Shown here: positions 30,185-46,624 of the stretch, piece after piece
How the letters are laid out: each line of letters starts with the position of its first letter
Position numbering within the stretch: the stretch's first letter is position 1
NCBI RefSeq assembly: GCF_024585285.1
Contig: NZ_CP040755.1
Coordinates: 62,001-126,000, forward strand
Direction of reading: 5' to 3'
DNA from: Colwellia sp. M166
Lineage (GTDB): Bacteria > Pseudomonadota > Gammaproteobacteria > Enterobacterales > Alteromonadaceae
Length of the DNA: 64,000 bases
The notes under the pieces: model-generated
Told to the model about the DNA's origin: nothing
Databases searched by the model: none
What the model saw: the letters and a program-made list of their open reading frames with translations, nothing else
Translations under genes and position numbers: made by a program

Positions 30185-30240
30185 GTGTCTATGACTGCTT
30201 TGGTGGCAAATAGGTCAGTCAATGTGACACCTATAAGCTC
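30185..30240 (-). repeat. attC-like repeat R1
   Basis: A nested palindrome: GTGTC/GACAC outside, TGACT/AGTCA next, TTTG/CAAA inside, apex loop GTGG at 30203-30206. The inner stem differs from that of R4 (TGTG/CACA) by a compensating pair change, supporting a real fold. It carries the shared apex GCTTTGGTGGC. It lies 175 bp above the membrane-protein start and just before the IS91-like element. Confidence 0.65.
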
Positions 30241-30365
30241 AAAGAACTAAACCGCTCCCGCGGTAATGGTGCTCTTTTCTAGTCCAGTGTCATTCTCTAA
30301 CTTCTGTATTCTTTTCTACTCTTAGCATTGAGGTATTGTGCCTCAATTTGCTAGGAGTATTTACT

Positions 30366-31268
30366 ATGAACATTTCAATACATTTTGACCCAGCCCTTCA
30401 TCAACGCATTAACGAAGATATGAGTCTGCGCAAACTTGCCACGAAAACCCAAATATCTTACATCCGAGCCATTAATCGCTTATGTGAGTATTTACAACAT
30501 TCGCCTGAGAACACAACTCATGAAGAGTTGCGTGAATTTCAATTGTTCTTGGTGAATGATGGAGCTACGGGAACAACCATTAATGGCATCCTTTCTGGTT
30601 TGAAATTCTTATATCAAATCACGTTAGATAGCCCACAACTTGTCACAAAGTTAAGCACTATTCCTGTTGCACGTAACTTACCTGTCGTATTGAATCTTGA
30701 AGAAATGAAACGCTTTCTTGCGGTAGCCGCACACCCAAAATATCATGCCGCATTCTCTGTAGCTTATGGTGCGGGGCTTCGCGTTAGCGAAGTAGTATCT
30801 CTGAAAGTTAGTGATGTAGACAGCGAGCGCATGGTACTTCGTGTTGAGCAAGGCAAAGGAAACAAAGATCGATATGCAAAACTTTCTCCCGCCTTGCTTG
30901 AGCATTTACGACATTGGTGGTGCTTTGCCAATAAACACGGACAAATGTATCGTGAGGGTTGGTTGTTTCCAGGACTTGATCCCATGAACCCTATGTCTGC
31001 TCGACAATTAAGTCGAATATGTGTAGAAACAGCTAAACTAGCAGGGATTAATAAAAAAGTCTCTATGCATACCTTACGACATAGTTTTGCCACACATTTA
31101 CTCGAAGCACATGTTGATATTCGCGTCATTCAAGTCTTACTCGGTCACTCTAGATTAAGCACCACTGCTTTATATGCACAAGTTGCCACTAATCTGTTAC
31201 GCGAAGTTATCAGCCCGCTTGATGCCCTAGAAAATAAGGATAAAACAAAATATAAGGATAAGTCGTGA
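30366..31268 (+). CDS. Tyrosine recombinase of an IS91-like element
   Basis: A phage-integrase family protein of about 300 residues. It has an N-terminal SAM-like core-binding domain (residues about 15-95) and a C-terminal catalytic domain with Arg in GAGLRVSEVVSL, HTLRHSFATHLL (HxxR), GHSRLSTTALYAQV (His and nucleophile Tyr). Such a recombinase often precedes IS91-family transposases in Shewanella and Vibrio and belongs to the element. ATG at 30366 has TAGGAG upstream. It ends 9 bp before the transposase. Confidence 0.88.
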   Translation: MNISIHFDPALHQRINEDMSLRKLATKTQISYIRAINRLCEYLQHSPENTTHEELREFQLFLVNDGATGTTINGILSGLKFLYQITLDSPQLVTKLSTIPVARNLPVVLNLEEMKRFLAVAAHPKYHAAFSVAYGAGLRVSEVVSLKVSDVDSERMVLRVEQGKGNKDRYAKLSPALLEHLRHWWCFANKHGQMYREGWLFPGLDPMNPMSARQLSRICVETAKLAGINKKVSMHTLRHSFATHLLEAHVDIRVIQVLLGHSRLSTTALYAQVATNLLREVISPLDALENKDKTKYKDKS

Positions 31269-31277
31269 GCGTTTATC

Positions 31278-32471
31278 ATGACTCGTCCTCAGTTAGAGAT
31301 AGCCGATATATTTCGTCATCATGGGCAACAATGGCGTGACACTCATCAAGGGCATGTAGGCTTAAGCCAATTGAAAGTCATGTCAGCGATTGAAAACTGT
31401 CGAACGCAAGTACTCGGTGGGCATATATTACGTTGCCAATCATGTGAGCACATTCACATATCGTACAACTCCTGCCGTAATCGTCATTGTCCTAAATGCC
31501 AAGCAAGCTCGGCAAAAAGATGGCTTGAAGCCAGGCAAGCACAACTGTTGCCAGTGGATTATTATCACTTGGTGTTCACTTTGCCCAAAGAGATTGCCAA
31601 CTTAGCGTATTACAACAAGTCGGTGATGTATGGTTTGTTGTTGAAAGTAGCCGCAGAAACATTACTGACGATTGGTGCTGATGTAAAACGTCTTGGAGCC
31701 AAACTAGGTGTGACATTTGTTCTGCATACATGGGGCAGTGCTATGACTCATCACCCGCATGTGCATGGTATTGTTCCTGGTGGTGGTTTATCTGCTGACT
31801 CAGAGCACTGGGTATCATGTAAATCAGGCTTCTTTCTTCCTGTTCGCGTGCTATCAAGATTGTTTCGACGCTTGTATCTAGAAAAACTCTCTCAGGCATA
31901 TCAAAGTAACTCACTGATGTTTTTCGGTAACGATGTCGAGCTCGAAAATGAGCAGTTGTTTGCTAAATGGCTTACGCCATTACGCAAAAAAGAGTGGATT
32001 GTCTATGCTAAGCGTCCATTTTCTGGGCCAAAAGCAGTATTCATCTACTTGTCGCGTTATACCCATCGAGTAGCTATATCGAATAGTCGCTTAGTTAAGT
32101 GTGATAGCAATGGTGTGACATTTCGTTGTAAAAACTACCGTGCTAAAACCTCTAGCCATTATCGAACCATGACGTTAGATAATGATGAGTTTATTCGCAG
32201 GTTTTTGCTACACACACTACCTTCAGGTTTTCATCGCATTCGTCACTATGGTTTGATCGCCAATACGGGTTGTAAAAAGAACTTGGTGAAGGCTCGTCAA
32301 TTACTCAACGTGATTGAAGTTATTCCTGAAACTAAGGACTTAGTTGAAGAAAAGCCTATTAAGCAAGGGCCAGTCTTTGTCTGTCCAGAATGCGGTGGGC
32401 CGATGGTGATCAACGAAATCTTAATCAGTCAGTTGAAACCTCGGGCACCACCGATGAAACTTGTGAATTAA
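31278..32471 (+). CDS. IS91 family transposase (HUH, Y2-type)
   Basis: A 397-residue rolling-circle transposase. The N-terminal zinc-finger CQSCEHIHISYNSCRNRHCPKCQ, the HUH motif in HTWGSAMTHHPHVHGIVPGGG, the YLSRYTHRVAISN signature with catalytic Tyr residues and a C-terminal zinc ribbon (VCPECGG) are intact. Length is normal for the family. Such elements move by single-strand rolling-circle replication and often capture neighbouring genes. Confidence 0.93.
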   Translation: MTRPQLEIADIFRHHGQQWRDTHQGHVGLSQLKVMSAIENCRTQVLGGHILRCQSCEHIHISYNSCRNRHCPKCQASSAKRWLEARQAQLLPVDYYHLVFTLPKEIANLAYYNKSVMYGLLLKVAAETLLTIGADVKRLGAKLGVTFVLHTWGSAMTHHPHVHGIVPGGGLSADSEHWVSCKSGFFLPVRVLSRLFRRLYLEKLSQAYQSNSLMFFGNDVELENEQLFAKWLTPLRKKEWIVYAKRPFSGPKAVFIYLSRYTHRVAISNSRLVKCDSNGVTFRCKNYRAKTSSHYRTMTLDNDEFIRRFLLHTLPSGFHRIRHYGLIANTGCKKNLVKARQLLNVIEVIPETKDLVEEKPIKQGPVFVCPECGGPMVINEILISQLKPRAPPMKLVN

Positions 32472-34451: not shown

Positions 34452-34758
34452 ATCTCTACCTTTTATTCTGAATTTTACTCAGCCTTCCGCTTTTAAATAA
34501 GTACAAAATAATTAAAGTAGCAATCACTCTCTTTTTCAAGCAATAGGGTAGTCGCTTGGGTGATTCGCACTTAAAAGGCACGATTTACTAGTAAAAAACA
34601 TTAGCGTAATGTCAAATCAGCACTTTAAAGCCATGTCAATACAAATACGTAAATGACTGCTTTGGTGGCTTTTTCGACTGTCAGGCTTGATCAAAACCTA
34701 TTTACAGAAAGTGTCAATCCAGGTTTGAGCTAATGCATGTTAACTGCTGAAATGAAAT
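34452..34758. other. Intergenic stretch holding R2
   Basis: This contains the attC-like repeat R2 (34597-34741) and an A/T-rich leader of the metallophosphoesterase. No other feature is seen. Confidence 0.5.
34597..34741 (-). repeat. attC-like repeat R2, long nested palindrome
   Basis: From outside in: AACAT/ATGTT, CATTAGC (34599) with GCTAATG (34729), CACTTT/AAAGTG, GTAAAT/ATTTAC, TGAC/GTCA, around GCTTTGGTGGC (34659-34669). The arms are in correct nested order, giving a cruciform of about 145 bp, comparable in size to Vibrio cholerae repeats. It ends 18 bp past the 3' end of the zinc-ribbon gene, and the outermost bases are AAC...GTT as in attC. Confidence 0.68.
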
Positions 34759-35190
34759 TTACTTAGTGCTCACATCTTCATCAATACTATCTTGTAAAGA
34801 TTCATCGTCACTGACATTTTGGTTAATCTTAACATCTGACAGAATGCTTTCTGCCGATCCTTTTTCTTTTTCAATGATTTCTTCTTGCTCTATCATAAAA
34901 CTATCTGAAACTAATCCGAACTTTTCACCTGACAAATCTTTTGCTTCATCAAACATGAACTCTGTTCTGCGTTGATCTCTCAGTGCATACAGCGCTGTTT
35001 TAAAGCAACTCTCACACAAGTCGAGCTGATAGACCTTGCCATCCTCTATTGAGCCATAGCCAAAACTTGCTTTTAACTCACCGCATTCTTCATATTTATG
35101 TTCATTTACTTCAACCATAACGCTCTGTTCGCAAACATCACAAATCTTATCTACTACTGTTTCAACAAGTTTTTCTGCATAAACTTTCAT
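34759..35190 (-). CDS. Zinc-ribbon hypothetical protein
   Basis: A 143-residue protein. Two CxxC pairs (ICDVCEQS near residue 17 and LCESCFKTALYAL near residue 57) should bind one zinc ion. The C-terminal third is acidic and low-complexity. I recall similar short proteins in mobile regions of Vibrio and Shewanella, always without assigned function. Start ATG at 35190 follows AAGGAATTATTA directly after a GGTGGC repeat (R3), as in a cassette. Confidence 0.7.
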   Translation of the reverse strand: MKVYAEKLVETVVDKICDVCEQSVMVEVNEHKYEECGELKASFGYGSIEDGKVYQLDLCESCFKTALYALRDQRRTEFMFDEAKDLSGEKFGLVSDSFMIEQEEIIEKEKGSAESILSDVKINQNVSDDESLQDSIDEDVSTK

Positions 35191-35195
35191 TAATA

Positions 35196-35222
35196 ATTCC
35201 TTGGTGGCTTTGGCGACGATCA
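35196..35222 (-). repeat. Partial attC-like repeat R3
   Basis: TTGGTGGCTTTGGCGACGATCAGTG carries the shared GGTGGC core immediately upstream of the zinc-ribbon gene, with a GGAA ribosome-binding site in the same stretch. It is shorter than the other copies; with R4 it may form one composite site. Confidence 0.4.
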
Positions 35223-35293
35223 GTGATAAATATAGTGCGCTAGTAGCGAACTAATCAAGTGGTATGAGTACGTTCCAAAATGGAACTAACTCC

Positions 35294-35382
35294 CACTAGC
35301 GTTATTAGTTCAATGTTGTATGACTGCTGTGGTGGCACATAAGTTAGTCAATGCGACACCTACAAGCTCATTGCCGCCAGTG
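35294..35382 (-). repeat. attC-like repeat R4
   Basis: Nested arms: CACTAGCG/CGCCAGTG, CAATG/CATTG, TTGTA/TACAA, TGACT/AGTCA, TGTG/CACA, apex GTGG. The inner pair is a compensatory variant of R1. It lies 57 bp after the 3' end of the outer-membrane protein gene. It shares AAGCTCATTGC(C/T)GCCAGTG with the region near 43561. Confidence 0.68.
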
Positions 35383-35438
35383 ACATATTGTCTATAAACT
35401 TACTTTTTGCCATAAAAACACCATGAAATCAGCAGTAT

Positions 35439-36302
35439 TTAAAAATGTGCAATAAAACCGACAAAAGTACCTTTAAATTCAAGGTCGGTGTATAAATTAT
35501 TTAAATTTTCCAATTCCATTTTGACTACCTTATATCCTAATGTCAGATGATAATCTCCCATTTTGGTATCAAGTAGATCGTAACTTAAACCAACTTGATA
35601 ATCAGAAATACTATGGTGATCTTTTAATGAAAAATCGCCTTGTGCAAATATGCTTATATTCTTTAACGGTAAGCTAACGTCAGTTGCAAAATACAGCATA
35701 GGTACGATGTCATTGGTTTTTATTTTACCAGTAGAAGTAACTGATGTTGAAGTTGATGTTGATGTTGTAGGACAAGTCGGATTTTGTGACGTTTGAGGGC
35801 AATCATCATCATTATCAACAATAATTTTTTTTCCTGTCACTATAACATCACCATTAAAATCCCTTGCGGTTAACCCTAAATCAAATGAAAAATTTCTGTT
35901 ATCTAGCAACTGGTAAAATAAAGTGTAATCGACATAACTAACGCTAAAGTTTGTATTAATATCGTCACCAGTTGGAAAGCTTTCTCCACCAAAGCTAAAT
36001 CCTTGTGTTAAGCTTTTTTTATTTGTGGTATTAAGCGAAGTACTTTCAATACGTATATTAGGCAGAAAAGAATAAGGATGTTTAACTGCTACAAAGTAGT
36101 TTGTTTGCTGTTCTTTTTTGGAATTAACATCAATGGGTGAACTTTCTTCACCAAAAGTCCCATTTACTTCACTTTGCCAAATTTGACCACCAAGATATAA
36201 ACCAACCTGACTTTTGTCTTTCGGGGTATAGCTAAAATTTGCAAATGTTTGCGGGATAAAAGTAAAAAGTATAGCAAGTGCTGCTAAAGCCGTTTTTTTC
36301 AT
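35439..36302 (-). CDS. TIGR04219-type outer-membrane beta-barrel protein
   Basis: A 287-residue protein with signal peptide (...FIPQTFA) and alternating amphipathic strands. The N-terminal YLGGQIWQSEVNGTFGEES and C-terminal VKMELENLNNLYTDLEFKGTFVGFIAHF (ending in Phe) match TIGR04219 family barrels. A Thr/Ser-rich insert (STSTSTSVTSTG) with an adjacent Cys pair lies in a loop. Function is unknown. It stands alone between repeats. Confidence 0.8.
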   Translation of the reverse strand: MKKTALAALAILFTFIPQTFANFSYTPKDKSQVGLYLGGQIWQSEVNGTFGEESSPIDVNSKKEQQTNYFVAVKHPYSFLPNIRIESTSLNTTNKKSLTQGFSFGGESFPTGDDINTNFSVSYVDYTLFYQLLDNRNFSFDLGLTARDFNGDVIVTGKKIIVDNDDDCPQTSQNPTCPTTSTSTSTSVTSTGKIKTNDIVPMLYFATDVSLPLKNISIFAQGDFSLKDHHSISDYQVGLSYDLLDTKMGDYHLTLGYKVVKMELENLNNLYTDLEFKGTFVGFIAHF

Positions 36303-36849
36303 CTGGTTATCATCCTTGTTTACTAGTGGCTATATTCCGTATTTTAATATGTGCCATCATCTTGAAAAAACATAATAATATTACCATAAACTATTAGGGT
36401 CTGTTGATCTTTCGAGATTGTTTTTGCAGCTTTTTGTTGGGTATTTATACAAGGCAGAGCCTTTGCCATGTGCTTGTTCCATATAAAAAGGCGATAACGC
36501 CGTACAAATGACCAACAAACGCTGTCCGAAGGATTCGGCTAAAAGCGTCTTACTCATTGTTGAGTAGTATTTGCTTAGAGTGACTAGGCTACACACTACT
36601 CGCCGCGACTAAAACGCTTTTATCTCGAACAAAATTTAACCACGAAAGATCAACAGACCCTAATAAAAAAAATTATTATTGACAATAAATTTTGTCTATG
36701 TTCCTATTTATTTCGCAGGGAGCATCCAATTATTACATTGATCGTAATTATTATTTCTAACCATTATTGTTATTAATTTACTCTAAATATTCCTATTCAG
36801 AGTTTTTGCATCCCTGTTATTTTTAATATTAACAAAGGATTTTTTAATA
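36303..36849. other. Gene-free stretch with a MITE
   Basis: About 550 bp between divergent genes. The MITE at 36394-36663 occupies the left half. The rest is AT-rich and likely carries promoters for the outer-membrane protein and for the small secreted protein. Confidence 0.6.
36394..36663. mobile_element. MITE with perfect 21-bp terminal inverted repeats
   Basis: The left end TTAGGGTCTGTTGATCTTTCG (36394-36414) is the exact complement of 36643-36663. TA flanks both sides, as for IS630/mariner-type insertion, although the flanks could also be part of the palindrome. The 270-bp element carries no transposase. An open frame inside is a by-product of the repeat. Confidence 0.85.
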
Positions 36850-37184
36850 ATGAAAAAGATATATGCATTAGTTCCACTCATTTTTACCGCATTTGTTTCT
36901 ACTTCTACTCTAGCTGGTACATGCTCTTTAAAGCTTGTAGATGAAGATGGAAATTTTTCGTCTGCTGATTATGGGCCAGGAGGTCTGGTATTCCTTTGGT
37001 CGGAGGAGGGGTTTATAATGGGGTAAATAACCAACTTTTACGTACAATAGATTTAGAGCTACGTTCACGAGTAAATAACCCTGCGGTTAACTCTGATTGC
37101 CCTTCATACTATGATAGAGATGAATGTAGAACTAAAAACTCTCGTCTAACAAAATTTACTGTTGATATTAATTGGTCAAATTAA
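36850..37184 (+). pseudogene. Small secreted protein with frameshift
   Basis: ATG at 36850 with AAAGGA upstream begins a signal peptide (MKKIYALVPLIFTAFVSTSTLA) and about 30 mature residues, then runs out of frame near 36985 and stops at FIMG. The other frame continues GIPLVGGGVYNGVNNQLLRTIDLELRSR to a stop at 37184, with a natural composition. A one-base loss around CTGGT would join them. The mature part has a few Cys residues (TCSLKL, DCPSYYDRDECR). It may be an assembly error, a genuine pseudogene or, less likely, programmed shifting. Confidence 0.6.
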
Positions 37185-37205
37185 TCGCTTTGATAATTAA
37201 CTTAG

Positions 37206-37250
37206 CCTCTCAATTAAGGTTAAAGCAACCTACATAGTTGAGAGGTTTTT
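37206..37250 (+). terminator. Terminator of the small secreted protein
   Basis: CCTCTCAA pairs with TTGAGAGG, with an inner hairpin AGGTT/AACCT, followed by T5; 22 bp after the stop codon. Confidence 0.85.
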
Positions 37251-37339
37251 ATTATGGCGATGCCAAGAAAACAACAAATAAGCCACCTAGGTACTCCGCA
37301 TCTTCATTGTATTTTCAGTTCAAAAATAAGTATTATTAA

Positions 37340-37420
37340 AGCTATTAATGACCGCTTTGGTGGCTCAGGAGCCAGTTGAGGAGATAATCAATCAGGTTTG
37401 ATATCCTATGCTCATTATGC
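37340..37420 (-). repeat. attC-like repeat R5
   Basis: It carries GCTTTGGTGGC at 37354-37364 with flanking TGACC. An inner hairpin TGGCTC-AG-GAGCCA replaces the usual short inner stem. The outer arms are weaker than in R2 or R4. The right flank AATCAGGTTTGAT matches R6 (GTCAGGTTTGATT). Confidence 0.5.
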
Positions 37421-37591
37421 CGTTGGTATTCTATTTTTAACATTAGCTATGAACCTTAAGCTCTAGTTAGCAACGATAGATTTTGCTCTCTGTAGTAAAA
37501 AGAAGATATTATTAAATCCTAAATAAAGACTGCGTATAATTCTTTATCAAAGTTTTTCTTGTTAAATTCTTTTATTACACGATTTATAAAC

Positions 37592-37625
37592 ATAGAACCA
37601 CTGTATTAAAATACAGTGGTTCTAT
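37592..37625. promoter_or_regulatory. Perfect 34-bp palindrome before LanC
   Basis: Two perfect 16-base arms (37592-37607 and 37610-37625) flank AA, starting ATAGAACCACTG, 18 bp before the LanC start codon. It could be a DNA operator, or a leader hairpin that exposes or hides the ribosome-binding site (AGAGAG at about 37629). Confidence 0.6.
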
Positions 37626-37643
37626 ATAGAGAGTAAAAATTTA

Positions 37644-38849
37644 ATGTTATTTGATACGGAACGTCATGAATTGCTTACCGTAACTTTATGGGATCATAAT
37701 GTTGTTCAAAAAGAAGTAATATCAATTATTAATGATATTGAACAATCATTGTTACCTAATGCTTGTTGGCCGACACATCCCCTCGATGCTGAAAGTTACC
37801 CTAGAGTTGGACCTAAATGGTCTGCCTATGCAGGAGCGGCTGGAGCTATTCATGGTTTACAAATTTTAAAAAACTACGGTTATGATGTACGTGATTTATC
37901 ACATTTACTTGAAGACGTTCACTCATCATTCATAAAATCTCCTGATGTATCAGTAGAATCTGGTCTGCAAATAGGTGAGATAGGTATTTTAGTACCTCGA
38001 TTATTGGCAGAGCCTGATAATCAAGAAGTATCTCAATACCTTTTGAAATGTATGGAAGAAACAGTAGATCTTCCTCTTTATGAGATAACGTCAGGGCAAA
38101 GTGGAATGATGCATGCTGCATTAGCCTTGTATCGTAATACAGGTGATATCTGCTGGAAAAGTATATTCATTAAAGGTGCAAAGTCATTAATGGATAATTG
38201 GAAAGAAGATACTGAAACAGGCGAATGGCATTGGCAAAGTCAAGTGTTTGGCCTTAAACGACATTATTATGGAGCTTGTCACGGTATATCTGGTAACGCA
38301 AACATCCTACTACAAGGTATTGATTTATTGCCAAGTAGTTATAGTGAAGTCATCATCAACCGAACTATTTCTACACTAAATATTTCAGCCAAAAGAGAAG
38401 CTAATTTAACTAATTGGGTTTTATGTACTAAACCAAATATTGATAAACTACTTGTACAGTGGTGCCATGGTGCCGCAGGTATTGTTACTGCAATGGCAAT
38501 GACACCCAAAGATAATTCTTCAAACTCTAAGCTACTTGATGAATTACTTGAAAGTACGGGGGAGTTAGTGTGGCAAGCTGGTCCACTAGTAAAAGGCTCT
38601 AATATTTGTCATGGTACTTCAGGCAACGGTTATGCCTTTTTATATTTATATAAAAGAACGGGTAACTCTATTTGGCTTGATAGGGCTAGAAAATTTGCAA
38701 TTCATGCTATTGAGCAGTGTAAGAGAGATCGTTTGCATTATGGTCAAGGTAGATACACATTATGGACAGGTGATGCTGGTCTTGCTATTTATTTGCATCA
38801 TTGTTTACATCCTGAAAATTCAGCTATTCCTGGTTTAGATTTATTTTAA
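37644..38849 (+). CDS. Stand-alone LanC-like protein
   Basis: A 401-residue protein of the LanC/LanCL alpha-toroid family. Repeated GxxG motifs (AAGAIHGL, TSGQSGMM, CHGISGN, CHGAAGI, CHGTSGNG) occur in order. Three CHG motifs supply the candidate zinc ligands: YYGACHGISG, LVQWCHGAAG and SNICHGTSG. Canonical LanC cyclises lanthionine peptides, but no LanB/LanM-type dehydratase or precursor peptide is beside it. It may therefore act like LanCL proteins (glutathione adding to dehydroamino acids) or on a peptide encoded elsewhere. It is on the plus strand, unlike most cassettes here. Confidence 0.85.
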   Translation: MLFDTERHELLTVTLWDHNVVQKEVISIINDIEQSLLPNACWPTHPLDAESYPRVGPKWSAYAGAAGAIHGLQILKNYGYDVRDLSHLLEDVHSSFIKSPDVSVESGLQIGEIGILVPRLLAEPDNQEVSQYLLKCMEETVDLPLYEITSGQSGMMHAALALYRNTGDICWKSIFIKGAKSLMDNWKEDTETGEWHWQSQVFGLKRHYYGACHGISGNANILLQGIDLLPSSYSEVIINRTISTLNISAKREANLTNWVLCTKPNIDKLLVQWCHGAAGIVTAMAMTPKDNSSNSKLLDELLESTGELVWQAGPLVKGSNICHGTSGNGYAFLYLYKRTGNSIWLDRARKFAIHAIEQCKRDRLHYGQGRYTLWTGDAGLAIYLHHCLHPENSAIPGLDLF

Positions 38850-39059: not shown

Positions 39060-39623
39060 TCAGTCCGTTTGTATGATGTTTTTTTCAAGAATATTAGACT
39101 CTAAACCATCTAAACTTTTTTGGTTTTTCTTTTCCCAATACTTTTCAATGCCATGTTCACCTTTTTTAATAGCCCAATCTTTAAGTTGTTCTCTATCTTC
39201 GTTATAGCTATAAAAAGGGACTGACATACCACAAGAGTTTTGAACAATATCTACTGATAAATCAAATATCTGCCTTGTACCTGGAAGTAACGTAAAATGA
39301 GCTGATAGCTCGTTCCATTCCACATCATTTCTATGGATAACTTTTGCATGGCCGTAAAGCCGCAATATATTAGGGCTACCATCAAATGCTAAAAACATAA
39401 TTGTCATGCGACTATCTGTTTGAATATGTGCCGATGTTTCATTCCCACTGCCAGTGACATTAAGCCAAATGACTCTGTTTGGCCCTAGAACTTTAAAAGA
39501 ATCCATTCCTTTTGGAGAGATATTTACTCGGCTATCTTTAGTTGCAGTGCCAACGAAATATATTTTTTGTTCTTTTATGAATTGAATGTTTCTATCAGAT
39601 ATTTCTGAATATTGCTGTCCCAC
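39060..39623 (-). CDS. Pyridoxamine 5'-phosphate oxidase-fold protein
   Basis: A 187-residue split-barrel flavin/PLP-fold protein. The N-terminal FIKEQKIYFVGTATKDSRVNISPKGMDSFKVLGPNRVIWLNVTGSGNETSAHI is characteristic of the PNPOx-like family, which binds FMN or F420. GTG at 39623 (GGAG upstream) is favoured over TTG at 39638, giving the usual MGQQYSEIS start. A RidA-family gene lies upstream; without the IS21 element the two would be about 45 bp apart and probably co-transcribed. Confidence 0.8.
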   Translation of the reverse strand: MGQQYSEISDRNIQFIKEQKIYFVGTATKDSRVNISPKGMDSFKVLGPNRVIWLNVTGSGNETSAHIQTDSRMTIMFLAFDGSPNILRLYGHAKVIHRNDVEWNELSAHFTLLPGTRQIFDLSVDIVQNSCGMSVPFYSYNEDREQLKDWAIKKGEHGIEKYWEKKNQKSLDGLESNILEKNIIQTD

Positions 39624-39667
39624 GCCTAAATTCTCCAATTAACAATTCGATTTTAATGATTTGTATA

Positions 39668-39672
39668 GCTAC
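39668..39672. other. IS21 target-site duplication (left)
   Basis: GCTAC at 39668-39672 is repeated at 42307-42311, immediately outside the two ends of the IS21 element. Confidence 0.75.
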
Positions 39673-39751
39673 TGCGTAATACCATGATGCCGATCGCTCA
39701 ATACCATTCAAGCCGATCACTTTTTTGTCTGCCAGTAGACCTCAGTAAAAT

Positions 39752-40516
39752 CTAACTTGAGTGATCGGCATCAGTCAAGGAATTTAGTTTTTTTCGCATC
39801 GATTCGCCTTTTAATTCCAACTTTATTGCTCCGTGAACAAGCCTATCTAGAATCGCATCCGCGTGTGTCGATTCTCCGATCATTTCATACCAATTTTCTA
39901 TCGGTAATTGGCTGGCAATTAAGGTCGATTTTGTGTCATATCTCGCATCAATTAATTCCAGTAAATCACTGCGTTGTTGAGCCGTTAATGGCTCTAATCC
40001 CCAATCATCTAAGATCAGTAAATTGGCAGAGCTAAGCTTGTTGATCAGTTTTCGATAACTCCCATCGGCTTGCGCTAAGAACATCTTTTCTAATAGCTCC
40101 TTGAGCCTAAAATAATAAACACTACTCCCTTGTTGGCAGTGATTTTGACCAAGCGCGCAAGCGAGGTAAGTTTTGCCACACCCCGTTGCGCCCGTGATCA
40201 AAATGTTTTGGTGAAGGCGAAGCCATTCACCTTGTGCTAATGAACGGATCTGAGTTTTATCGAGTTGTCGTGCTGCGCCATAGTTGAGTTGAGCAAGCGT
40301 GCCGCCAACTCTGAACTTTGCTTGTCGAGTTAGTCGGTCAATTTTACGTTGATCACGCTGCGTTATTTCATGCTCAAGCAATAAACTTAGCCGCTCTTCG
40401 AAGCTTTGTTCAACGTATAGATTGGGTTGCTCGTATTGCTGTAATAGCGCATCACATATACCGCTTAGCTTTAAGTGACTTAACTGATTATTGACTTGTT
40501 GATTGATGTTTTGCAT
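39752..40516 (-). CDS. istB: IS21 helper ATPase IstB
   Basis: A 254-residue AAA+ ATPase, DnaC-like. Walker A is LITGATGCGKTYLACALG and Walker B LLILDDWGLEPL. The sensor and arginine finger region is ARYDTKSTLIASQLPIENWYEMIG. It regulates strand transfer by IstA. It follows istA after 28 bp in the same orientation. Confidence 0.93.
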   Translation of the reverse strand: MQNINQQVNNQLSHLKLSGICDALLQQYEQPNLYVEQSFEERLSLLLEHEITQRDQRKIDRLTRQAKFRVGGTLAQLNYGAARQLDKTQIRSLAQGEWLRLHQNILITGATGCGKTYLACALGQNHCQQGSSVYYFRLKELLEKMFLAQADGSYRKLINKLSSANLLILDDWGLEPLTAQQRSDLLELIDARYDTKSTLIASQLPIENWYEMIGESTHADAILDRLVHGAIKLELKGESMRKKLNSLTDADHSS

Positions 40517-40544
40517 AAGGTTTCCTTTGGTTTGTTAGTTTTTA

Positions 40545-42107
40545 TTAATGGTAATAGTTGTTGCCGCGGATATTTTTATGAGCAATATCTTGTAGTAAAT
40601 CACCTTGAGCTTGTGGCAAGGGTTGCTTATCTAAGCCTTTTTCTAAGATGGTTGTTACTTGTTTTACGCGAGTAACACCTGTGGCTAATGCACGATGACA
40701 GGCTGCTTCAAGACGTTGGTCTGTAAACTTCTTGCCTAGGCTTAATAACCCCATACAAGCACGGTAGCTTTGCTCTGGATGCTTTTTAGCTTGCATCAAT
40801 TGCATAACAAACTGCTCCGTTGATTTGCCGAATTTACTTGCCCAGCGCTCAAATCGCTGCGGTGTCCATTGCTGTTGTTTTTGGTGAGCGATAGGCATAT
40901 GCAGTTCAAGCGTAGTGTGTGCACCTTCTCGGTATGATCTGGGATGAACAGCGACTCGTATGCCTTGATGGTAGAGTGTCACCAATTTCCCTGAGGCATG
41001 GACTTCAAGCTTTTGCTTGATCAAGGTGTGAGGCACAGAGTAATAGTGTTTTTCAACTTCCACATGGTAATCAATATGCACGCTAACTTGTTTTACCAAT
41101 GTATAGCTGTAAGGCTGTGTGGGTAAATGTTTGAGCGCAGGTCTGTCGATAGCGTCAAACTGACTGAGCCGTGAGCCAGGATGCTTTTTCATTTTCCTCT
41201 GATTTAAATCGACCAGTAATGCTTGTATCTTCAGGTTCAATTGACGCAAGCTAAAGAAGGTTTCATTACGAAGGCGTGCCATGATCCAACGCTCAACAAT
41301 TTGTACACCCACTTCAGCCTTGGATTTATCTTTTGGTTTATAAGGTCTAGCAGGCACAATGACCGTATCATAATGTGTCGCTAGTTGTTGGTAGGTTGGG
41401 TTTAAGTCAGGCTCATATCGGCAGGGTTTGGTGACGGCACTTTTAAGGTTGTCAGGGATGATCAGCTCAGGAACACCACCAAGAAACTCAAAACAACGGG
41501 CGTGACTCATCACCCAATCTTCGAGTTTCTGGCTGTAAGTCGCTTCGGCATAGGTATAATTTGATGCACCCATGACTGCGACGAACACTTGTGCAGTACG
41601 GCACTCACCTGTACTTCCATCAACAATACTCATGGTTGGGCCACAGTAATCCACAAACAGTTTTTCTCCTGCTTTATGGTTTTGTCGCATCGAGGGTTTT
41701 TGGCATTTAAGCCACGCCTTGTACTGGCGGCAGAAGTGGGTGTAACTGTAAAATCCTTCCGCATGTCGCTCTTTATATTCCTCCCAAAGCAATAACAACG
41801 TCATGGTTTTTGGTCGTAGCTCTTGCTGAACTAATGACCAGTCTGGGATCGTAAAACCTTTGAGTCGAGGCTTTGTTTTGAAGAACGCTTGTTGCAGAGA
41901 GTGATCATCCCACTTCTCATCAAGCGGCCAGCAAGTAATATCTAGCTCTGCTGATTTACAGGCATATTTAGATACGATTGAAGGTGAAACAGATAAGCTT
42001 TTTGCTATCTGACGATGACTGAGTTTACAGCCGTATTTTAATCTTAAAATCTCTTTAAGTTTACGCATTGAAATAGGTGCCGTTGGCATGGTCATTCTCA
42101 TCATCAA
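40545..42107 (-). CDS. istA: IS21 family transposase IstA
   Basis: A 520-residue DDE transposase. The N-terminal helix-turn-helix (LKYGCKLSHRQIAKSLSVSPSIVSKY) is followed by a retroviral-type core: KLFVDYCGPT (first Asp), LIIPDNLKSAV (second Asp) and PKDKSKAEVGVQ (Glu). A beta-barrel domain follows. The C-terminus is complete (to KNIRGNNYYH). It is paired with istB. Confidence 0.93.
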   Translation of the reverse strand: MMMRMTMPTAPISMRKLKEILRLKYGCKLSHRQIAKSLSVSPSIVSKYACKSAELDITCWPLDEKWDDHSLQQAFFKTKPRLKGFTIPDWSLVQQELRPKTMTLLLLWEEYKERHAEGFYSYTHFCRQYKAWLKCQKPSMRQNHKAGEKLFVDYCGPTMSIVDGSTGECRTAQVFVAVMGASNYTYAEATYSQKLEDWVMSHARCFEFLGGVPELIIPDNLKSAVTKPCRYEPDLNPTYQQLATHYDTVIVPARPYKPKDKSKAEVGVQIVERWIMARLRNETFFSLRQLNLKIQALLVDLNQRKMKKHPGSRLSQFDAIDRPALKHLPTQPYSYTLVKQVSVHIDYHVEVEKHYYSVPHTLIKQKLEVHASGKLVTLYHQGIRVAVHPRSYREGAHTTLELHMPIAHQKQQQWTPQRFERWASKFGKSTEQFVMQLMQAKKHPEQSYRACMGLLSLGKKFTDQRLEAACHRALATGVTRVKQVTTILEKGLDKQPLPQAQGDLLQDIAHKNIRGNNYYH

Positions 42108-42306
42108 AAATGAAAAGAATAACGGTTAAAAACACCTACTGGCTAGACAAAGAGTGTGAATATTGAACGATACTATTCAAGCCGATCACTCAATACCATT
42201 TTGACCGAAAAGTGATCGGCATCGATGGTATTGAGTGATCGCGATGGATGGTATTAGGTGATCGGCTTAGATGGTATTAGGTGATCGCGATGCATGAGAA
42301 TATGCA

Positions 42307-42311
42307 GCTAC
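42307..42311. other. IS21 target-site duplication (right)
   Basis: Second copy of GCTAC. It overlaps the stop codon of the RidA-like gene, showing that the element landed exactly at its 3' end. Confidence 0.75.
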
Positions 42312-42688
42312 GATACTACACAATCAACTTCTGTCTCTACTAGCCATTGTAGATCTATGAATCTACTTACTTCAACGAAGGTACAAGCTGGTTTAATAGA
42401 TGAGAATAACTCTCCATGTGCTTGTGCAGCTTCTTTCCAACGGGAAATATCAGTGAGCATAATTCGAGTTCTAATAACATCTTGAATACTACCACCTGCT
42501 TCCTCTATTGCAGTAATTGAAAGCTCAAGGCAGTATTTAGTTTGATTATATACATCATCAATATGAACCGTTTTACCATTATTGATCGGAGCCGTTCCTG
42601 AAACAGAGATAGAATTACCAATTCTACAAGCACGAGAAAAGCCAATAGGCTCTTCAAGGTGAGAACCTGAACTAACAATTTTACGCAT
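42308..42688 (-). CDS. RidA family protein
   Basis: A 126-residue member of the YjgF/YER057c/RidA family, which hydrolyse reactive enamine/imine intermediates. The start SSGSHLEEPIGFSRACRIGNSISVSGTAP and the end RFIDLQWLVETEVDCVV are conserved. The Arg in IRTRIMLTD corresponds to the substrate-binding Arg of RidA. The IS21 insertion duplicated 5 bp over its stop but left the coding sequence intact. It lies upstream of the PNPOx gene; PLP-linked chemistry could connect the two, but this is inference. Confidence 0.85.
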   Translation of the reverse strand: MRKIVSSGSHLEEPIGFSRACRIGNSISVSGTAPINNGKTVHIDDVYNQTKYCLELSITAIEEAGGSIQDVIRTRIMLTDISRWKEAAQAHGELFSSIKPACTFVEVSRFIDLQWLVETEVDCVVS

Positions 42689-42830
42689 ATGCTTCCTTGT
42701 AGTTATAACCGCTTATCATGAGGGCTTCTCAGTAATATAACACAAGAAATTCATTAGATAATATATGGAAAAATATTTTTAGTTAATTGATGCTTGTTGC
42801 ACTTTTAAGTCATCCTTCTCAACTTCGTTA

Positions 42831-42879
42831 CTGGCGGCTTTGGTGGCGTTGTTGCCAGATACCAGTTATGGATCTGGCA
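42831..42879 (-). repeat. attC-like repeat R7
   Basis: CTGGC/GCCAG brackets GCTTTGGTGGC (42837-42847). A second, stronger hairpin follows: TGCCAGAT (42853) with ATCTGGCA (42872), with one extra A inside (CCAGATACC), resembling the unpaired base of attC sites. It lies only 7 bp beyond the 3' end of the small recombinase gene. Confidence 0.6.
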
Positions 42880-42885
42880 CAATAC

Positions 42886-43509
42886 CTAAGAGTCGATACT
42901 CTCTGAAATCTCAAGAGCATCATCAACTTCAATCCCTAAATACCTAACAGTGCTTTCAAGCTTTCGATGACCTAGCAACAATTGGCACGCTCGTAGATTT
43001 TTAGTTTTTTTGTATATCAATGATGGCTTCGTTCTTCTCATCGTATGAGTTCCATATTGGGTTTGATCTAAACCAATCATGGAAACCCAAGCATCAACAA
43101 TTCTTCCATACTGACGTGTTGATAGGTGTTCTGATGAATGAATACGAGACTTGAATAAATAATCATTTGAGTTTAGTTGAAAATTTGTAATTAAAGTTTG
43201 AACTGAATTACGTGTATTTTCGGTAAGTTCAAATTGAACGGGTAATCCCGTCTTTTGTTGAACAATAATGACTCTCGACTGAATAATTTTTCCGTGAGCA
43301 ATATCTCGAATCTTTAGAGTAACTAAATCGCATCCTCTCAATTTACTATCGATAGCAAGGTTAAAAAGCGCAAGGTCTCTTATATTATTCACTAATTCTA
43401 ATCTGATTCGGATTGCCCAAATTTGTTGTAGCTTAAGTGGTAATTTTTGCCCAACAATTTTGTTTTTATTCCATGGCTCAGTTGGTTTATAAACGGTTAA
43501 AGAAAACAT
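42886..43509 (-). CDS. Small catalytic-domain-only tyrosine recombinase
   Basis: A 207-residue tyrosine recombinase consisting essentially of the catalytic domain, with no N-terminal core-binding (SAM-like) domain. Catalytic residues: Arg in DSKLRGCDLVTL, His and Arg in GTHTMRRTK, His in LGHRKLES and Tyr in TVRYLGIE. Proteins of this short type are common on plasmids and islands and may resolve or move DNA. It sits in the cassette-like region and may act on the repeats here. Its start is sequestered in a hairpin at 43513-43537. Confidence 0.8.
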   Translation of the reverse strand: MFSLTVYKPTEPWNKNKIVGQKLPLKLQQIWAIRIRLELVNNIRDLALFNLAIDSKLRGCDLVTLKIRDIAHGKIIQSRVIIVQQKTGLPVQFELTENTRNSVQTLITNFQLNSNDYLFKSRIHSSEHLSTRQYGRIVDAWVSMIGLDQTQYGTHTMRRTKPSLIYKKTKNLRACQLLLGHRKLESTVRYLGIEVDDALEISESIDS

Positions 43510-43512
43510 GAT

Positions 43513-43537
43513 AGTTCTCCGTTATTAATGGAGAACT
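43513..43537 (-). promoter_or_regulatory. Hairpin sequestering the ribosome-binding site of the small recombinase
   Basis: AGTTCTCC and GGAGAACT (perfect 8-base arms, 9-base loop) lie 3 bp above the ATG. On the mRNA the GGAG of the ribosome-binding site is inside the stem, so translation should be inhibited when folded. It could also be a DNA operator for autoregulation. Confidence 0.6.
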
Positions 43538-43595
43538 AAGTATGGTCTATTGTTAGCTTCAAGCTCATTGCTGCCAGTGGCTGTCCATATCAGAA

Positions 43596-43640
43596 CGCTA
43601 ACAATGCCACAAACACGGCAATAAAAGACAAGTGTTAGCG
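43596..43640 (-). repeat. Compact canonical-like attC site (R8)
   Basis: CGCTAACA and TGTTAGCG form the ends of a 45-bp imperfect palindrome, with inner arms TGCC/GGCA. This is the general attC layout with AAC...GTT core boxes (consensus RYYYAAC/GTTRRRY, imperfectly matched). It lies 84 bp below the transposase 3' end. Confidence 0.55.
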
Positions 43641-43723
43641 AGCTTTATACGAGTGAATTTTAAATGTCTTGTATAGGATGAACCATTCTACTTGTAATTT
43701 TGCTCTTAATTGAAATTCAGTTA

Positions 43724-44599
43724 TTACATATCCCATCCTCTAATATTTTTCTTTCCTTTAAAATTATCAATATCTTGGGTTTTAGACATTAAAAACTCTA
43801 AAAGAGGGATGTTTTTAAACCTACAAGTTTGAGCTATGCCCAATAAAATTAGATAGTTAATCATACCTGATTCAGAAAAAGATCCTGATATCTTTCTCTG
43901 TACAGCAAGGTGTCTAAGCGCTCTTTCTGCCATATTATTATTCCAAGGGACATCATCTTTCTCTAAAAAAACAAATAAGCTATTTCTGTAACGTTTGAAA
44001 CGCTTTTGAAACGTACTAGTCACTTCTGATTTGTATGTGTTTTCATCTATATGATATTGATAAAAATTTTCAATCTTAACTTTAAATTTTCTCAAATTTC
44101 TTTTCTTCAGCCCATACTTATCAACGGCCCCAAAAATGGGAGATAAAACTTGCTGTAGATTGTATATAAAATTTTGAAGCTCTAAATCGAAAGGGAATTT
44201 ATGAAGAGCATCATTTATATCTCGAATTAAATGTACTAAGCACTTTTGTTGGCAGCAATCTACGGCATCATATCCCGCAAAAAAATCAGAAATCAATACC
44301 CCTGTATACCCTTTTAAAACTTCATGTACTATTGCCGAATCACGAGTTGGTGTAAGCTTAAATATGACGTGATTTCCATCTGTAAATACCCATATATACT
44401 GTATTTTACCATGAATATTTATAAGCGTTTCATCAACATGTATTTTAGAGGAACCTAGAATTTTTTTTAAAATGATACTTTCTGTTTTTTTGTAAATACT
44501 GCTTATCGACATAAAAAGTTCAGCAATACTAGAAGGACTCACAGTGAGATTGAATGAATCTTCAAGCAGTTGTGTTATTTTCCTGTATGGCAACCTCAT
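43724..44599 (-). CDS. IS66-type DDE transposase (3' part of a probable frameshift fusion)
   Basis: A DDE transposase of the IS66 type. The first Asp is in IHVDETLINIHGKIQYIWVF, the second in VLISDFFAGYDAV and the Glu in NNNMAERALRHLAVQRK. ATG at 44599 is the first start, but the frame stays open to 44932 and encodes a Cys-rich zinc finger (RTCPKHK, GRCTKCKKDITPP) without any usable start. This upstream part overlaps the nuclease gene in another frame by about 110 bp. It can only be made by frameshifting, so the working protein is probably a fusion with the nuclease. Confidence 0.82.
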   Translation of the reverse strand: MRLPYRKITQLLEDSFNLTVSPSSIAELFMSISSIYKKTESIILKKILGSSKIHVDETLINIHGKIQYIWVFTDGNHVIFKLTPTRDSAIVHEVLKGYTGVLISDFFAGYDAVDCCQQKCLVHLIRDINDALHKFPFDLELQNFIYNLQQVLSPIFGAVDKYGLKKRNLRKFKVKIENFYQYHIDENTYKSEVTSTFQKRFKRYRNSLFVFLEKDDVPWNNNMAERALRHLAVQRKISGSFSESGMINYLILLGIAQTCRFKNIPLLEFLMSKTQDIDNFKGKKNIRGWDM

Positions 44600-44819
44600 T
44601 GCTAACCTTTGATATGCAATCCACGCTTTAATACCGTATCCATACTTACTACTTTTACCAAACCTTCTGATAGTTGGAGGAGTAATATCCTTCTTACATT
44701 TTGTGCATCGACCTTTATAACCCCAATATTTAATTACTGTTTTTTTTATTCCTTTTGGATGGCAAACTAAATCAATAATAACTTTCTCTGCAATTATATC
44801 TTTAGTTATTAGTAATCTT

Positions 44820-46415
44820 TTATGTTTTGGGCATGTTCTTCCACGTACAACACGAACCTTTTTGTCTATTTTTATTTTTGCCGTAAAGGTATTTTTTATG
44901 CTTGATCGTTTCCCTATTTTTTTTTCTGTTTTTATTCAAGGATATTTTTGATTGCTCATAGATGCCATGAGCAGATTTGATTATTTTCTTAAAATCTTGA
45001 ATTATTAAATTATTCGTTTCATCAAGGCATTGATCTTCAGAATTAACCGCTATTACATTAGAGTTAGCTTTGTCATGTAGAGCTATTTCACAAATAACAC
45101 CTTTCAATCTTTTTAAATTTAGGCAATCCTCTTGATTATATGTAATTAGCTTTTTTTTAATTACTTGAACTTGTGTCTTTTCATAATTATGTCGCCAAAC
45201 AATACTTGTTAATCCATTGGCATCTTCATCGTCCCATGTATAACCAAGATAATTACAAATATCTTTTAAACTATTACTTATAGTTGGGAAGTAAATTCGC
45301 CCATAGATGTACTCATTTATATTGCACAGCCGCAGGTTAATACTATCAACATCTGTGTTATAGCGTAGTCCAAGTTCTTTAATTACACGTTTCTCATAAC
45401 TCCCATAATGATAAATTGGTGCTTTAGGGGATTCGTTGATAATTTCATTAAAGGATTTCCAAATAATTAACTCGTCTTTTTTATTTTCAGCCCATAAAGA
45501 GATACATTCATCTTTGTCGGGGTTTGATACTATAATCCCAATTAAATAGTGAAATTTATCGTCAGGCATCGACTCAACATCAATGAATATTTCAGTATCT
45601 GCCCCTTGTAGTTCTTTCAAATTATCGGTGTATATCTTTTTAGTTCGCAAAGCTAATGCTTGTAATTCATATTGATGGGTAGGTTTTTTATCTCCCAAAA
45701 AACGTGATCTACGCCTTGGTTTATACAAATATGAAAGCTGCTTAATTGTAAAAATCCCTTTAGACTCAAATTTTCTTATTACCTTTTTTGTCATATTTGC
45801 TAGTAAATTGATACTGTCATTCTTTTTTACGCTTTCTAAACATTCTTTTTCAAAAGGGCAAATACAACAATGCTTATTAAGTATCACTGCTGGAATTTCG
45901 GGCTTTGAATGCTTCCAATGTTCAAGCTCTTCAATGATAGGTAGGTGAATATCGACTTTATGCTGAATAGTTTTTTTTAGACCATTTTGAAGTATAACAA
46001 CAGATCTTTTCGGTTTAATGCCTTCTGCTTTATATAAGATATCAGCTATAAACGAAGCTTTAACTCTATCTTCATTCTTTAGTACAGGATAATCAGAAAA
46101 TAGTAATGGCTCATAAGACAGTTCATTTAAATATTTTTTACTAACCCTCTCTAAATGAATGCACTCTACAGAACCGTAAGGGGTATCAAAGTATGCGTTT
46201 AAGGTAATATCAACATCGGTTAAATGATTTTTTTGATACTGACAGCACTCTCTACCCTCTAGATATTGACGTTGTATATTAAGTTTTTTTTCATCAATAT
46301 ATAGTGAAAATGTTTGCTGTTTACCGAGTGAGAAACCATAAAGAATGAGGTAAGCTTTTCGAGGGCATATTGAATATGAGTAAACGATATTTTCCGTTAT
46401 GTTTAACTTGAACAT
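44820..46415 (-). CDS. TM0106-type RecB/RNase H-like nuclease (5' part of a probable fusion)
   Basis: A 531-residue protein. The N-terminal Cas4/RecB-like nuclease has YSICPRKAYLILYG and CCICPFEKECL, cysteines that may hold an Fe-S cluster, with VKASFIADILY as active-site region. A YprB-type RNase H-like exonuclease follows: IFIDVESMPDDKFHYLIGI (DxE), HYGSYEKRV and ITYNQEDCLNL. The last 35 residues are basic and out of the natural frame. ATG at 46415 is favoured over 46424. Nucleases of the TM0106 family are often encoded beside transposases. Confidence 0.78.
   Translation of the reverse strand: MFKLNITENIVYSYSICPRKAYLILYGFSLGKQQTFSLYIDEKKLNIQRQYLEGRECCQYQKNHLTDVDITLNAYFDTPYGSVECIHLERVSKKYLNELSYEPLLFSDYPVLKNEDRVKASFIADILYKAEGIKPKRSVVILQNGLKKTIQHKVDIHLPIIEELEHWKHSKPEIPAVILNKHCCICPFEKECLESVKKNDSINLLANMTKKVIRKFESKGIFTIKQLSYLYKPRRRSRFLGDKKPTHQYELQALALRTKKIYTDNLKELQGADTEIFIDVESMPDDKFHYLIGIIVSNPDKDECISLWAENKKDELIIWKSFNEIINESPKAPIYHYGSYEKRVIKELGLRYNTDVDSINLRLCNINEYIYGRIYFPTISNSLKDICNYLGYTWDDEDANGLTSIVWRHNYEKTQVQVIKKKLITYNQEDCLNLKRLKGVICEIALHDKANSNVIAVNSEDQCLDETNNLIIQDFKKIIKSAHGIYEQSKISLNKNRKKNRETIKHKKYLYGKNKNRQKGSCCTWKNMPKT
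44917..44925 (-). other. A9 slippery run between nuclease and transposase
   Basis: On the minus strand the message has nine A residues inside the overlap of both frames. A -1 slip (or a polymerase slip) at this run links the nuclease frame to the transposase frame (GKRSSIKNTFTAKIKIDKK...). Such runs drive programmed frameshifting in many insertion sequences. Confidence 0.55.
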
Positions 46416-46540
46416 AGTTATCAACTCACACTTTCATAGCCTTATTTTAGTTTAGCAAAGAAATTATTTTTAATAATCACCTCAGTAACAGAACAAAAAG
46501 TCACGCATTAGATAATAGGCTAATTATTTGGGGTTAATGT

Positions 46541-46624
46541 CGTCAATGTACTTTGAAGTTATGCCAATGTGAATTCGTGACTGGCGGCAATGGTGGCTTT
46601 GCTGACCTTATTGGATTGTTGACG
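46541..46624 (-). repeat. attC-like repeat R9
   Basis: Nested arms: CGTCAA (46541) with TTGACG (46619), CCAAT/ATTGG, GCAA/TTGC around TGGTGGCT. It shares TGACTGGCGGCAATGGTGGC with R7 and R6 types. It lies 126 bp upstream of the nuclease start and marks the right edge of the cassette-like region. Confidence 0.62.

What the first reader, a model, noticed from the sequence alone, without database searches (positions are those of the whole stretch)
30185..46624. Cassette-like array of single genes separated by attC-like imperfect palindromes with a conserved GCTTTGGTGGC apex
Seen: at least eight repeats (near 30185, 34597, 35196, 35294, 37340, 38904, 42831, 46541) share a GCTTTGGTGGC-type core. 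Most fold as nested arms in correct order (R2: CATTAGC/GCTAATG, CACTTT/AAAGTG, GTAAAT/ATTTAC, TGAC/GTCA). Inner stems covary between copies (TTTG/CAAA in R1, TGTG/CACA in R4, CAA/TTG in R6). Between them lie unrelated, mostly minus-strand genes, and the repeats usually follow the gene 3' end. Known: integron cassettes have this layout and attC sites fold as single strands. Inferred: this is a CALIN-type array with divergent attC sites, or a cassette system served by another recombinase. No IntI is present in the window.
Basis: partly seen in the sequence, partly recalled or inferred. Interest (0 to 1): 0.88.

Follow-up and report, generated by a model that had tools for sequence, protein, structure and literature searches.

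The report
Integron-like gene array, different recombinase
A bacterial genome carries a row of mobile genes joined at short repeated recombination sites, laid out like an integron but with different sites and probably served by a very small recombinase, which may be another way for bacteria to collect genes.

Summary
The repeats are real: seven strong copies and one weak (R3), all in the same direction. They are not integron attC sites. A model of the genome's own attCs finds further attCs there but none of the eight repeats, and neither folding nor arm covariation is supported. They look like recombinase core sites of about 30 bp: TGACYGCnnT-GGTGGC-n6-GnCnGTCA.

Units appear to move at these sites. 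A two-gene unit lies at four places in the genome; its identity stops right after GGTGGC, before three different right halves. A second unit has a homologue beside another such site in a sister species. Another sister species lacks the 18.5-kb array; the right breakpoint falls at the last site, beside a conserved 112-bp element that elsewhere also follows such a site (attI-like end).

In 9 of 16 contexts tested, this gene or a relative lies between the same inverted arms. I propose a cassette array that works like an integron but is not one, probably served by this enzyme. Array and unit mobility are fairly well supported; the enzyme is inferred, activity untested.

The parts
30192..30221 (+). 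R1 core site (TGACTGCTTT-GGTGGC-AAATAG-GTCAGTCA); right part runs into an IS91-type element
34654..34683 (+). R2 core site
35193..35222 (+). R3, degenerate core (left arm lost)
   Evidence: seen; not found by the matrix
35321..35350 (+). R4 core site
37349..37378 (+). R5 core site
38932..38961 (+). R6 core site
42832..42861 (+). R7 core site, just behind the 3' end of the 207-aa recombinase gene
46582..46611 (+). R8 core site, last of the array, joined to attX
46601..46712 (+). attX: conserved 112-bp attI-like element at the right end of the array
   Evidence: 8 (nearly) full copies in 6 of 17 genus genomes and 7 partial copies; 6 other copies follow an arm + CGTAT(C/A) core, one is empty
42886..43509 (-). 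207-aa catalytic-domain tyrosine recombinase (candidate enzyme)
   Evidence: Pfam Phage_integrase 57.7 bits; R58, K86, H155, R158, H181 and Y190 invariant in 12 aligned sequences, their catalytic role recalled; predicted fold resembles XerA and Cre
42830..43578 (-). recombinase element with its two arms: ACTGGCAGCAAT-GAGCTT ... GCCACC-AAAGCCGCCAGT
   Evidence: 743 bp shared with G119 (93%) and G041 (91.5%), other flanks there
29239..30207 (-). unit U1: helix-turn-helix gene 29332-29616 and 159-aa protein 29531-30010
   Evidence: three more copies in the genome, ends at GGTGGC
34720..35336 (-). unit U3 with 143-aa gene 34759-35190
   Evidence: 90% homologue of 34720-35274 beside another GGTGGC site in G163
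35351..37364 (-). unit with outer-membrane beta-barrel gene (TIGR04219) 35439-36302
   Evidence: unit limits inferred from R4 and R5
37379..38947 (+). unit with LanC-like gene 37644-38849
   Evidence: unit limits inferred from R5 and R6
38962..42847 (-). unit with PNPOx-like gene 39060-39638 and Rid/L-PSP gene 42308-42688, split by an IS21 copy 39752-42107
   Evidence: unit limits inferred
43579..46597 (-). first unit next to attX: RecB-like nuclease gene (TIGR03491) 44820-46424, with IS66 remnant 43724-44599
   Evidence: unit limits inferred
30244..32471 (+). IS91-type element with its own tyrosine recombinase (30336-31268) and transposase (31278-32471); rival enzyme or parasite of the sites
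   Evidence: right end not determined

Best explanation
The region is an array of mobile gene units ('cassettes') separated by directly repeated tyrosine-recombinase core sites. SHOWN by sequence: each strong site has a left arm TGACYGC, a 6-bp centre GGTGGC and an inverted right arm of the type GnCnGTCA; all sites point the same way; one unit recurs at other places with breakpoints at the centre; the array is absent from the same locus of a sister species; its right end is a conserved attI-like element (attX), and most genes read away from it. INFERRED: recombination in GGTGGC between two sites frees a unit as a circle or inserts one; attX is the preferred entry point; the enzyme is the 207-aa catalytic-domain recombinase whose gene lies inside site R7. 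It works like an integron, with a different enzyme and with sites that look like double-stranded core sites rather than folded attC hairpins.
For: Site anatomy: in 29 distinct copies G, C and T at +7, +9 and +12 behind GGTGGC are 97% conserved; the left arm and centre were partly fixed by the selection, and 3 of the 29 had been fetched by a pattern that fixes the right half. Of 30 loci found by the left half alone, 8 have the right half by a strict rule, about 0.2 expected. Mobility: U1 is at 4 places, 97-100% alike, identity ends at the C of GGTGGC, then 3 different right halves. U3 homologue beside another GGTGGC site. Empty locus in G182: window 23006-28086, 247 bp, window 46601 onward. attX: 8 (nearly) full copies in 6 of 17 genomes; 7 of the 8 follow an arm and a 6-bp core. 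Enzyme: gene inside the site; the same element between other arms in G119 and G041; two 99.6% copies between different arms in G002; 9 of 16 contexts have both inverted arms at p < 0.03, 6 of 13 without the three that helped to make the matrix.
Against: No activity is shown. The two ends of the recombinase element have different hexamers (GAGCTT and GCCACC), and the empty attX of G182 has no GGTGGC, which a plain duplex exchange with a shared overlap does not explain. Seven of 16 recombinase contexts fail the arm test at p < 0.05, and 0 of 6 plasmid relatives pass. Of the 15 recombinase loci fetched, only five hold strong GGTGGC sites. Sites and recombinase co-occur weakly over genomes: 10 shared, p = 0.037, or 0.067 without this genome. 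The left edge of the island lies in IS remnants, not at a site. Two of the U1 copies (539 and 3460 kb) share a larger block and are not independent. The U3 homology starts 51 bp behind the core.
Confidence: 0.55

Rival explanations
1. The recombinase element is an IS-like transposon that inserts between palindromic arms; the other sites are its small non-autonomous relatives (MITEs); the array is an accretion of such insertions and the genes between them are passengers.
For: The recombinase element is found between different arms with the same borders; short site-like stretches are dispersed singly and attX itself is dispersed.
Against: U1 is shared without its neighbouring spacers, with breakpoints at the core on the right side; all seven strong sites point the same way and end at attX.
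Confidence: 0.22
2. The array is as described, but the enzyme is the 310-335-aa integrase of the IS91-type elements, or an enzyme elsewhere in the genome.
For: An IS91-type element with its own integrase abuts R1. Of 8 distinct ends of that element in my loci, 4 stand three bases behind a core or border hexamer, 3 behind a [GC]CAC-AAA or GCAC-AAA motif also seen in unit ends, 1 is unclear. Pfam finds 38 integrase matches in the genome.
Against: The loci were fetched because they hold sites, so the count is biased; target choice by a parasite explains it as well; the 207-aa gene lies inside the site structure.
Confidence: 0.13
3. A CALIN: integron cassettes with very divergent attC sites, once moved by an IntI.
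For: Array layout, gene direction, an attI-like end; the genome has two true IntI; some single sites show attC-like double palindromes by eye (R1, the site at 951399).
Against: Own attC model finds none of the eight repeats; folding and arm tests fail.
Confidence: 0.04
4. A chance or purely homologous-recombination pile-up of IS elements and intergenic repeats with no site-specific system.
For: The region holds IS1182, IS91, IS21 and IS66 copies or remnants.
Against: Identity breaks at the same base before three different right halves; conserved two-armed core; site density against controls.
Confidence: 0.05

Closest known systems
Integrons and CALINs (IntI, attI, attC)
   Same: Directly repeated sites, one gene or few per unit, genes mostly reading away from a conserved end element, units recurring in other contexts.
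   Different: No IntI above the cut-off in the window, sites not found by the genome's own attC model, no supported hairpin fold; candidate enzyme has only the catalytic domain.
FimB/FimE-type small tyrosine recombinases (recalled; PRK09870/PRK09871 models)
   Same: About 200 aa, catalytic domain only, weak matches to those models (19.8 and 25.4 bits, cut-offs 221 and 222).
   Different: No invertible promoter known here; directly repeated sites with genes between.
Xer/dif-type core sites and pdif modules (recalled)
   Same: Two inverted arms around a 6-8-bp centre; catalytic part resembles Xer proteins.
   Different: Sites are about 30 bp with TGAC arms and sit in an array with attX; dif itself was not compared.
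MITEs / mobile insertion cassettes (recalled)
   Same: Gene units between inverted ends, dispersed short relatives.
   Different: The element seen with such ends carries a tyrosine recombinase, and breakpoints lie at a core site.

Membership tests
Integron / CALIN | Integron integrase IntI next to the array (integron proper) | tested here: not met
   Best in window 167.5 bits, cut-off 265; the two true IntI lie at 893648 and 4051737
Integron / CALIN | attC sites by sequence and structure | tested here: not met
   Model from 3 own attCs finds none of the 8 repeats at E <= 10; window hits 25013-25099 (25.4 bits) and 13405-13462 (13 bits) lie outside the array
Integron / CALIN | Sites fold as hairpins with covarying arms | tested here: inconclusive
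   z -1.74 to +1.08; own-arm test p = 0.29; single sites look palindromic by eye
Integron / CALIN | Array of units with sites in one direction, genes read away from the end element | tested here: met
   7 strong sites all +; most genes minus, attX at the right, with exceptions
Integron / CALIN | Breakpoints of unit gain and loss at the sites | tested here: met
   U1 right end and array right end; the left end of the island is not informative
Tyrosine recombinase | Catalytic residues R, K, H, R, H, Y present | tested here: met
   R58, K86, H155, R158, H181, Y190 invariant in 12 sequences; roles assigned from recall
FimB/E-type invertase | Inverts a segment between inverted sites | not tested
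   Sites here are direct repeats
MITE / mobile insertion cassette | Ends shared with an autonomous element | tested here: inconclusive
   The element seen with arms at both ends carries the 207-aa recombinase; target-site duplications not assessed
pdif / Xer module | dif-like 28-bp site bound by XerC and XerD | not tested
   No comparison with dif was made
Any system | Recombination activity of enzyme on site | not testable with these tools
   Needs experiment

The most novel reading that the evidence does not exclude
An integron-like gene-capture system outside the IntI/attC lineage: a catalytic-domain-only recombinase, coded inside its own attachment site, moves gene units between duplex core sites with a GGTGGC or CGTATC centre and a dispersed attI-like entry element, in Alteromonadales-type genomes and possibly wider, since relatives of the enzyme are on 397 of 72,556 plasmid records and the one on a Pantoea plasmid has similar arms by eye (matrix test not significant).
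Probability: 0.4. Interest if true: 0.85.

Novelty: new variant of a known kind. Interest (0 to 1): 0.62.

Why it matters
Integrons are the standard example of a bacterial gene-collecting array. Another system with the same layout but other sites and a minimal enzyme would suggest that the design arose more than once, would give a role to a widespread family of small recombinases that the sources seen here name only 'integrase' or 'recombinase', and would mean that surveys based on IntI and attC miss part of the mobile gene pool.

Tried and rejected
CALIN with divergent attC: rejected. Hairpin with an unpaired centre and pairing boxes: some single sites look so by eye (R1 ATAGGT/ACCTAT; the site at 951399 CAGGAG/CTCCTG), but tests over copies did not support it. 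Known RNA family: no Rfam match in 28000-48000 at gathering scores. Plasmid copies of 29100-30345: no match. ATGACTGCTTTGGTGGC alone: 55 stretches in genome contigs and 8 in viral contigs, many in unrelated phyla; of the 15 genome contigs and viral-contig loci printed with titles or positions, the Colwellia, Thalassotalea and one Enterobacterales MAG looked like sites by eye, the viral ones like coding DNA. Genome-level co-occurrence: weak. Arms around six plasmid relatives: p = 0.06 to 0.93, none significant. The two G153 hits turned out to be one repeated stretch with no right arm. Papers: the listings show no such system (one search lists 20 of 22, one search lists 30 of 363); of PMC8138268 I saw 12 of 25 passages, which describe simple tyrosine recombinases as having core-binding and catalytic domains. 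No other paper was opened; the library holds no preprints and few subscription papers.

Selection to keep in mind: the matrices were made from site copies that include those of the window. One search used 12 units picked by eye from the 40 cores. One search used 16 of the 41 recombinase places. One search used the 30 of 65 hits that came with loci. One search asked 10 of the 17 genus genomes and only window 31000-50900. The family searches saw 196 genomes drawn from a larger family.
Full report
WHAT WAS CHECKED. The window is G000:C1:62001-126000 of a complete 4.84-Mb genome. GCTTTGGTGGC with up to two mismatches occurs 35 times in the window against 12.9 expected; ATGACNGCNNTGGTGGC nine times in the genome, five of them here, and never as the reversed control. 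A weight matrix made from site copies gives seven sites at 23.4-28.4 bits, all on the + strand; R3 is degenerate and was missed.

THE SITE. Sites align as a two-armed core. In 29 distinct copies the left arm reads TGAC-n-GC (T 100, G 93, A 86, C 100, G 100, C 100%), and behind GGTGGC stand G at +7 (97%), C at +9 (97%), G at +11 (76%) and T at +12 (97%). The selection itself fixed the centre and part of the left arm, and 3 of the 29 had been fetched by a pattern that fixes the right half. Of 30 loci found by left half and centre only, 8 have the right half by a strict rule, about 0.2 expected; by eye several more have variants of it, and many others are chance hits in genes. Over 196 family genomes the left half with centre has 65 hits in 38 genomes against 15 hits of the reversed control.

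NOT attC. The genome has two integron integrases above the cut-off of 265 bits (465 and 450 bits). Near the first lie classical attCs ending in GCGTTAG. A covariance model from three of them finds in loci of that region three unseen sites at 69, 67 and 52 bits and a weaker one at 27, but none of the eight repeats at E <= 10; the window hits, 25013-25099 (25.4 bits) and 13405-13462 (13 bits), lie outside the array. Seven of the eight repeats (not R7) and one further stretch were folded as single DNA strands: z from -1.74 to +1.08. Across-spacer pairing is not significant for any of the seven strong window sites (p 0.31-0.99), and a unit's own arms match no better than swapped ones (94 against 91.0, p = 0.29). 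Single sites with attC-like double palindromes exist, so a weak fold is not excluded.

UNITS MOVE. Window 29239-30207 (helix-turn-helix gene and 159-aa protein) recurs at three other places of the genome at 97-100%. In each, identity stops after the C of GGTGGC. Behind it stand AAATAGGTCAG in the window, TTTTGCGACTG at 539 and 3460 kb, and TTTGTTGACTA at 3992 kb. The copies at 539 and 3460 kb also share a larger block with IS copies and are not independent. Unit 3 has a 90% homologue in G163 beside another GGTGGC site with another left neighbour; there the homology starts 51 bp behind the core because the spacers differ. At the locus of this array G182 has window 23006-28086 (81%), then 247 bp, then window 46601-47236 (85%) and 47608-52000 (83%): the 18.5 kb between are absent. 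The right border lies at GGTGGCTTT|GCTGACC; the left border lies in IS remnants. Four more genus genomes examined at this locus also lack the array. At the 3992-kb locus the close relative G007 has about 2.9 kb of other sequence.

AN attI-LIKE END. The 112 bp right of the last site (46601-46712, 'attX') are conserved: 9 of 17 genus genomes have a match, with 8 (nearly) full copies in G000, G007 (two), G182 (two), G196, G056 and G163, and 7 partial ones. Six of the full copies follow an arm AAYGTCCG and a second type of centre, CGTAT(C/A) (one arm is a base short); the window copy follows GGTGGC; the copy of G182 at the empty locus follows neither. Partial copies share the outer half only. Most cassette genes start on the attX side and read away from it, as in integrons; LanC is an exception. 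A recurrent double site, GGTGGC and about 90 bp on CGTATC, is seen in G196, G007, G119 and G130.

THE RECOMBINASE. The window holds two tyrosine recombinases. One (30336-31268) belongs to an IS91-type element. The other (42886-43509) is a 207-aa protein with only the catalytic domain and a predicted fold like XerA and Cre (pLDDT 76.5, TM about 0.6, a guide only). All 7999 candidates scored in a search of 5.8 billion proteins passed E 0.001, that being the cap of the search; 30 of 196 family genomes have a relative at E <= 1e-40. Its gene lies inside a site: ACTGGCAGCAAT-GAGCTT, upstream region, gene, small inverted repeat, GCCACC-AAAGCCGCCAGT. In G119 and G041 the same element (743 bp, 93 and 91.5%) has other flanks and the same kind of arms; in G002 two copies, 99.6% alike over 902 bp, lie between different arms. 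Of 16 contexts tested with an arm matrix, 9 have both arms in inverted order at p < 0.03 against random segments of the same loci, 1 has p = 0.052 and 6 do not (p 0.087-0.98); without the three that helped to make the matrix it is 6 of 13. The best-scoring stretch is not always the border seen by comparison (G140). None of six plasmid relatives passes, although the Pantoea one shows AACGTCCGTT ... AAGCGGACATT by eye. Of the 15 recombinase loci fetched five hold strong GGTGGC sites: G119, G041, G002 and two of G130. Over genomes the overlap of site and recombinase is weak (10 genomes, p = 0.037; 0.067 without this one). In array 2 of this genome (sites at 944, 945, 951 (two) and 957 kb on the minus strand) the recombinase copy covers residues 1-161 and has a stop inside.

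HOW IT MOST LIKELY WORKS. Exchange in the GGTGGC centre between two direct sites would free the unit between them as a circle with one site; the reverse at attX or another site would insert it. This gives arrays in one direction with breakpoints at the centre, as seen. That the 207-aa protein does it is inferred from its place inside the site structure in several genomes. Two facts do not fit a plain duplex exchange: the two ends of the recombinase element have different hexamers (GAGCTT, GCCACC), and the empty attX has no GGTGGC. An integron-like one-sided exchange could explain them and is not excluded. The main rival enzyme is the IS91-linked integrase: of 8 distinct ends of that element in my loci, 4 lie three bases behind a core or border hexamer, 3 behind a (G/C)CAC-AAA motif also seen in unit ends, and 1 is unclear; those loci were fetched because they hold sites, so the count is biased, and target choice of a parasite would look the same.

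AGAINST KNOWN SYSTEMS. It works like an integron but fails two tested features (IntI in cis, attC model), and a third (fold) is not supported, so I do not file it there. Catalytic-domain size is shared with FimB/E, core layout with Xer sites (both recalled). The papers searched show no such system (listings, passages of PMC8138268).

VERDICT. Observation partly confirmed, interpretation partly supported: a real cassette array, not attC-based, with a likely minimal recombinase. Interest 0.62; the novel reading stands at 0.4.

Noticed in passing
window 30244-32471; L182, L085, L030, L031, L034, L221, L180: Ends (GAACTAAACCGC...GCGGTAATGG) of IS91-type elements with their own tyrosine recombinase lie at or near cassette-site hexamers in most of the 8 distinct copies in my loci; they may be parasites of the sites or a second enzyme. 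The loci were chosen for sites, so the count is biased.
   Followed up: partly
window 25013-25099: Weak match (25.4 bits, E 0.0013) of the genome's own attC model, outside the array and inside an ORF; probably chance.
   Followed up: no
window 28115-28237 and 47384-47506: 123-nt inverted repeat, 93% complementary, flanking the whole island outside attX; origin unknown.
   Followed up: no
window 36392-36419 and 36638-36665: 28-nt inverted pair around 218 nt, MITE-like; pieces of 36394-36668 recur in G119, G091, G198 and G182.
   Followed up: no
G000:C1:4051737-4052684 and 893648-894583: The same genome has two true integron integrases; the first with classical attCs, the second with an IS21 copy at its start.
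   Followed up: partly
G000:C1:944169-957060 (L040): A second array of the same sites on the minus strand with a broken copy of the 207-aa recombinase and an IS91-type element.
   Followed up: partly
L230, L228, L171, L284: Recurrent double site: GGTGGC core and about 90 bp on a CGTATC core, in G196, G007, G119 and G130.
   Followed up: partly
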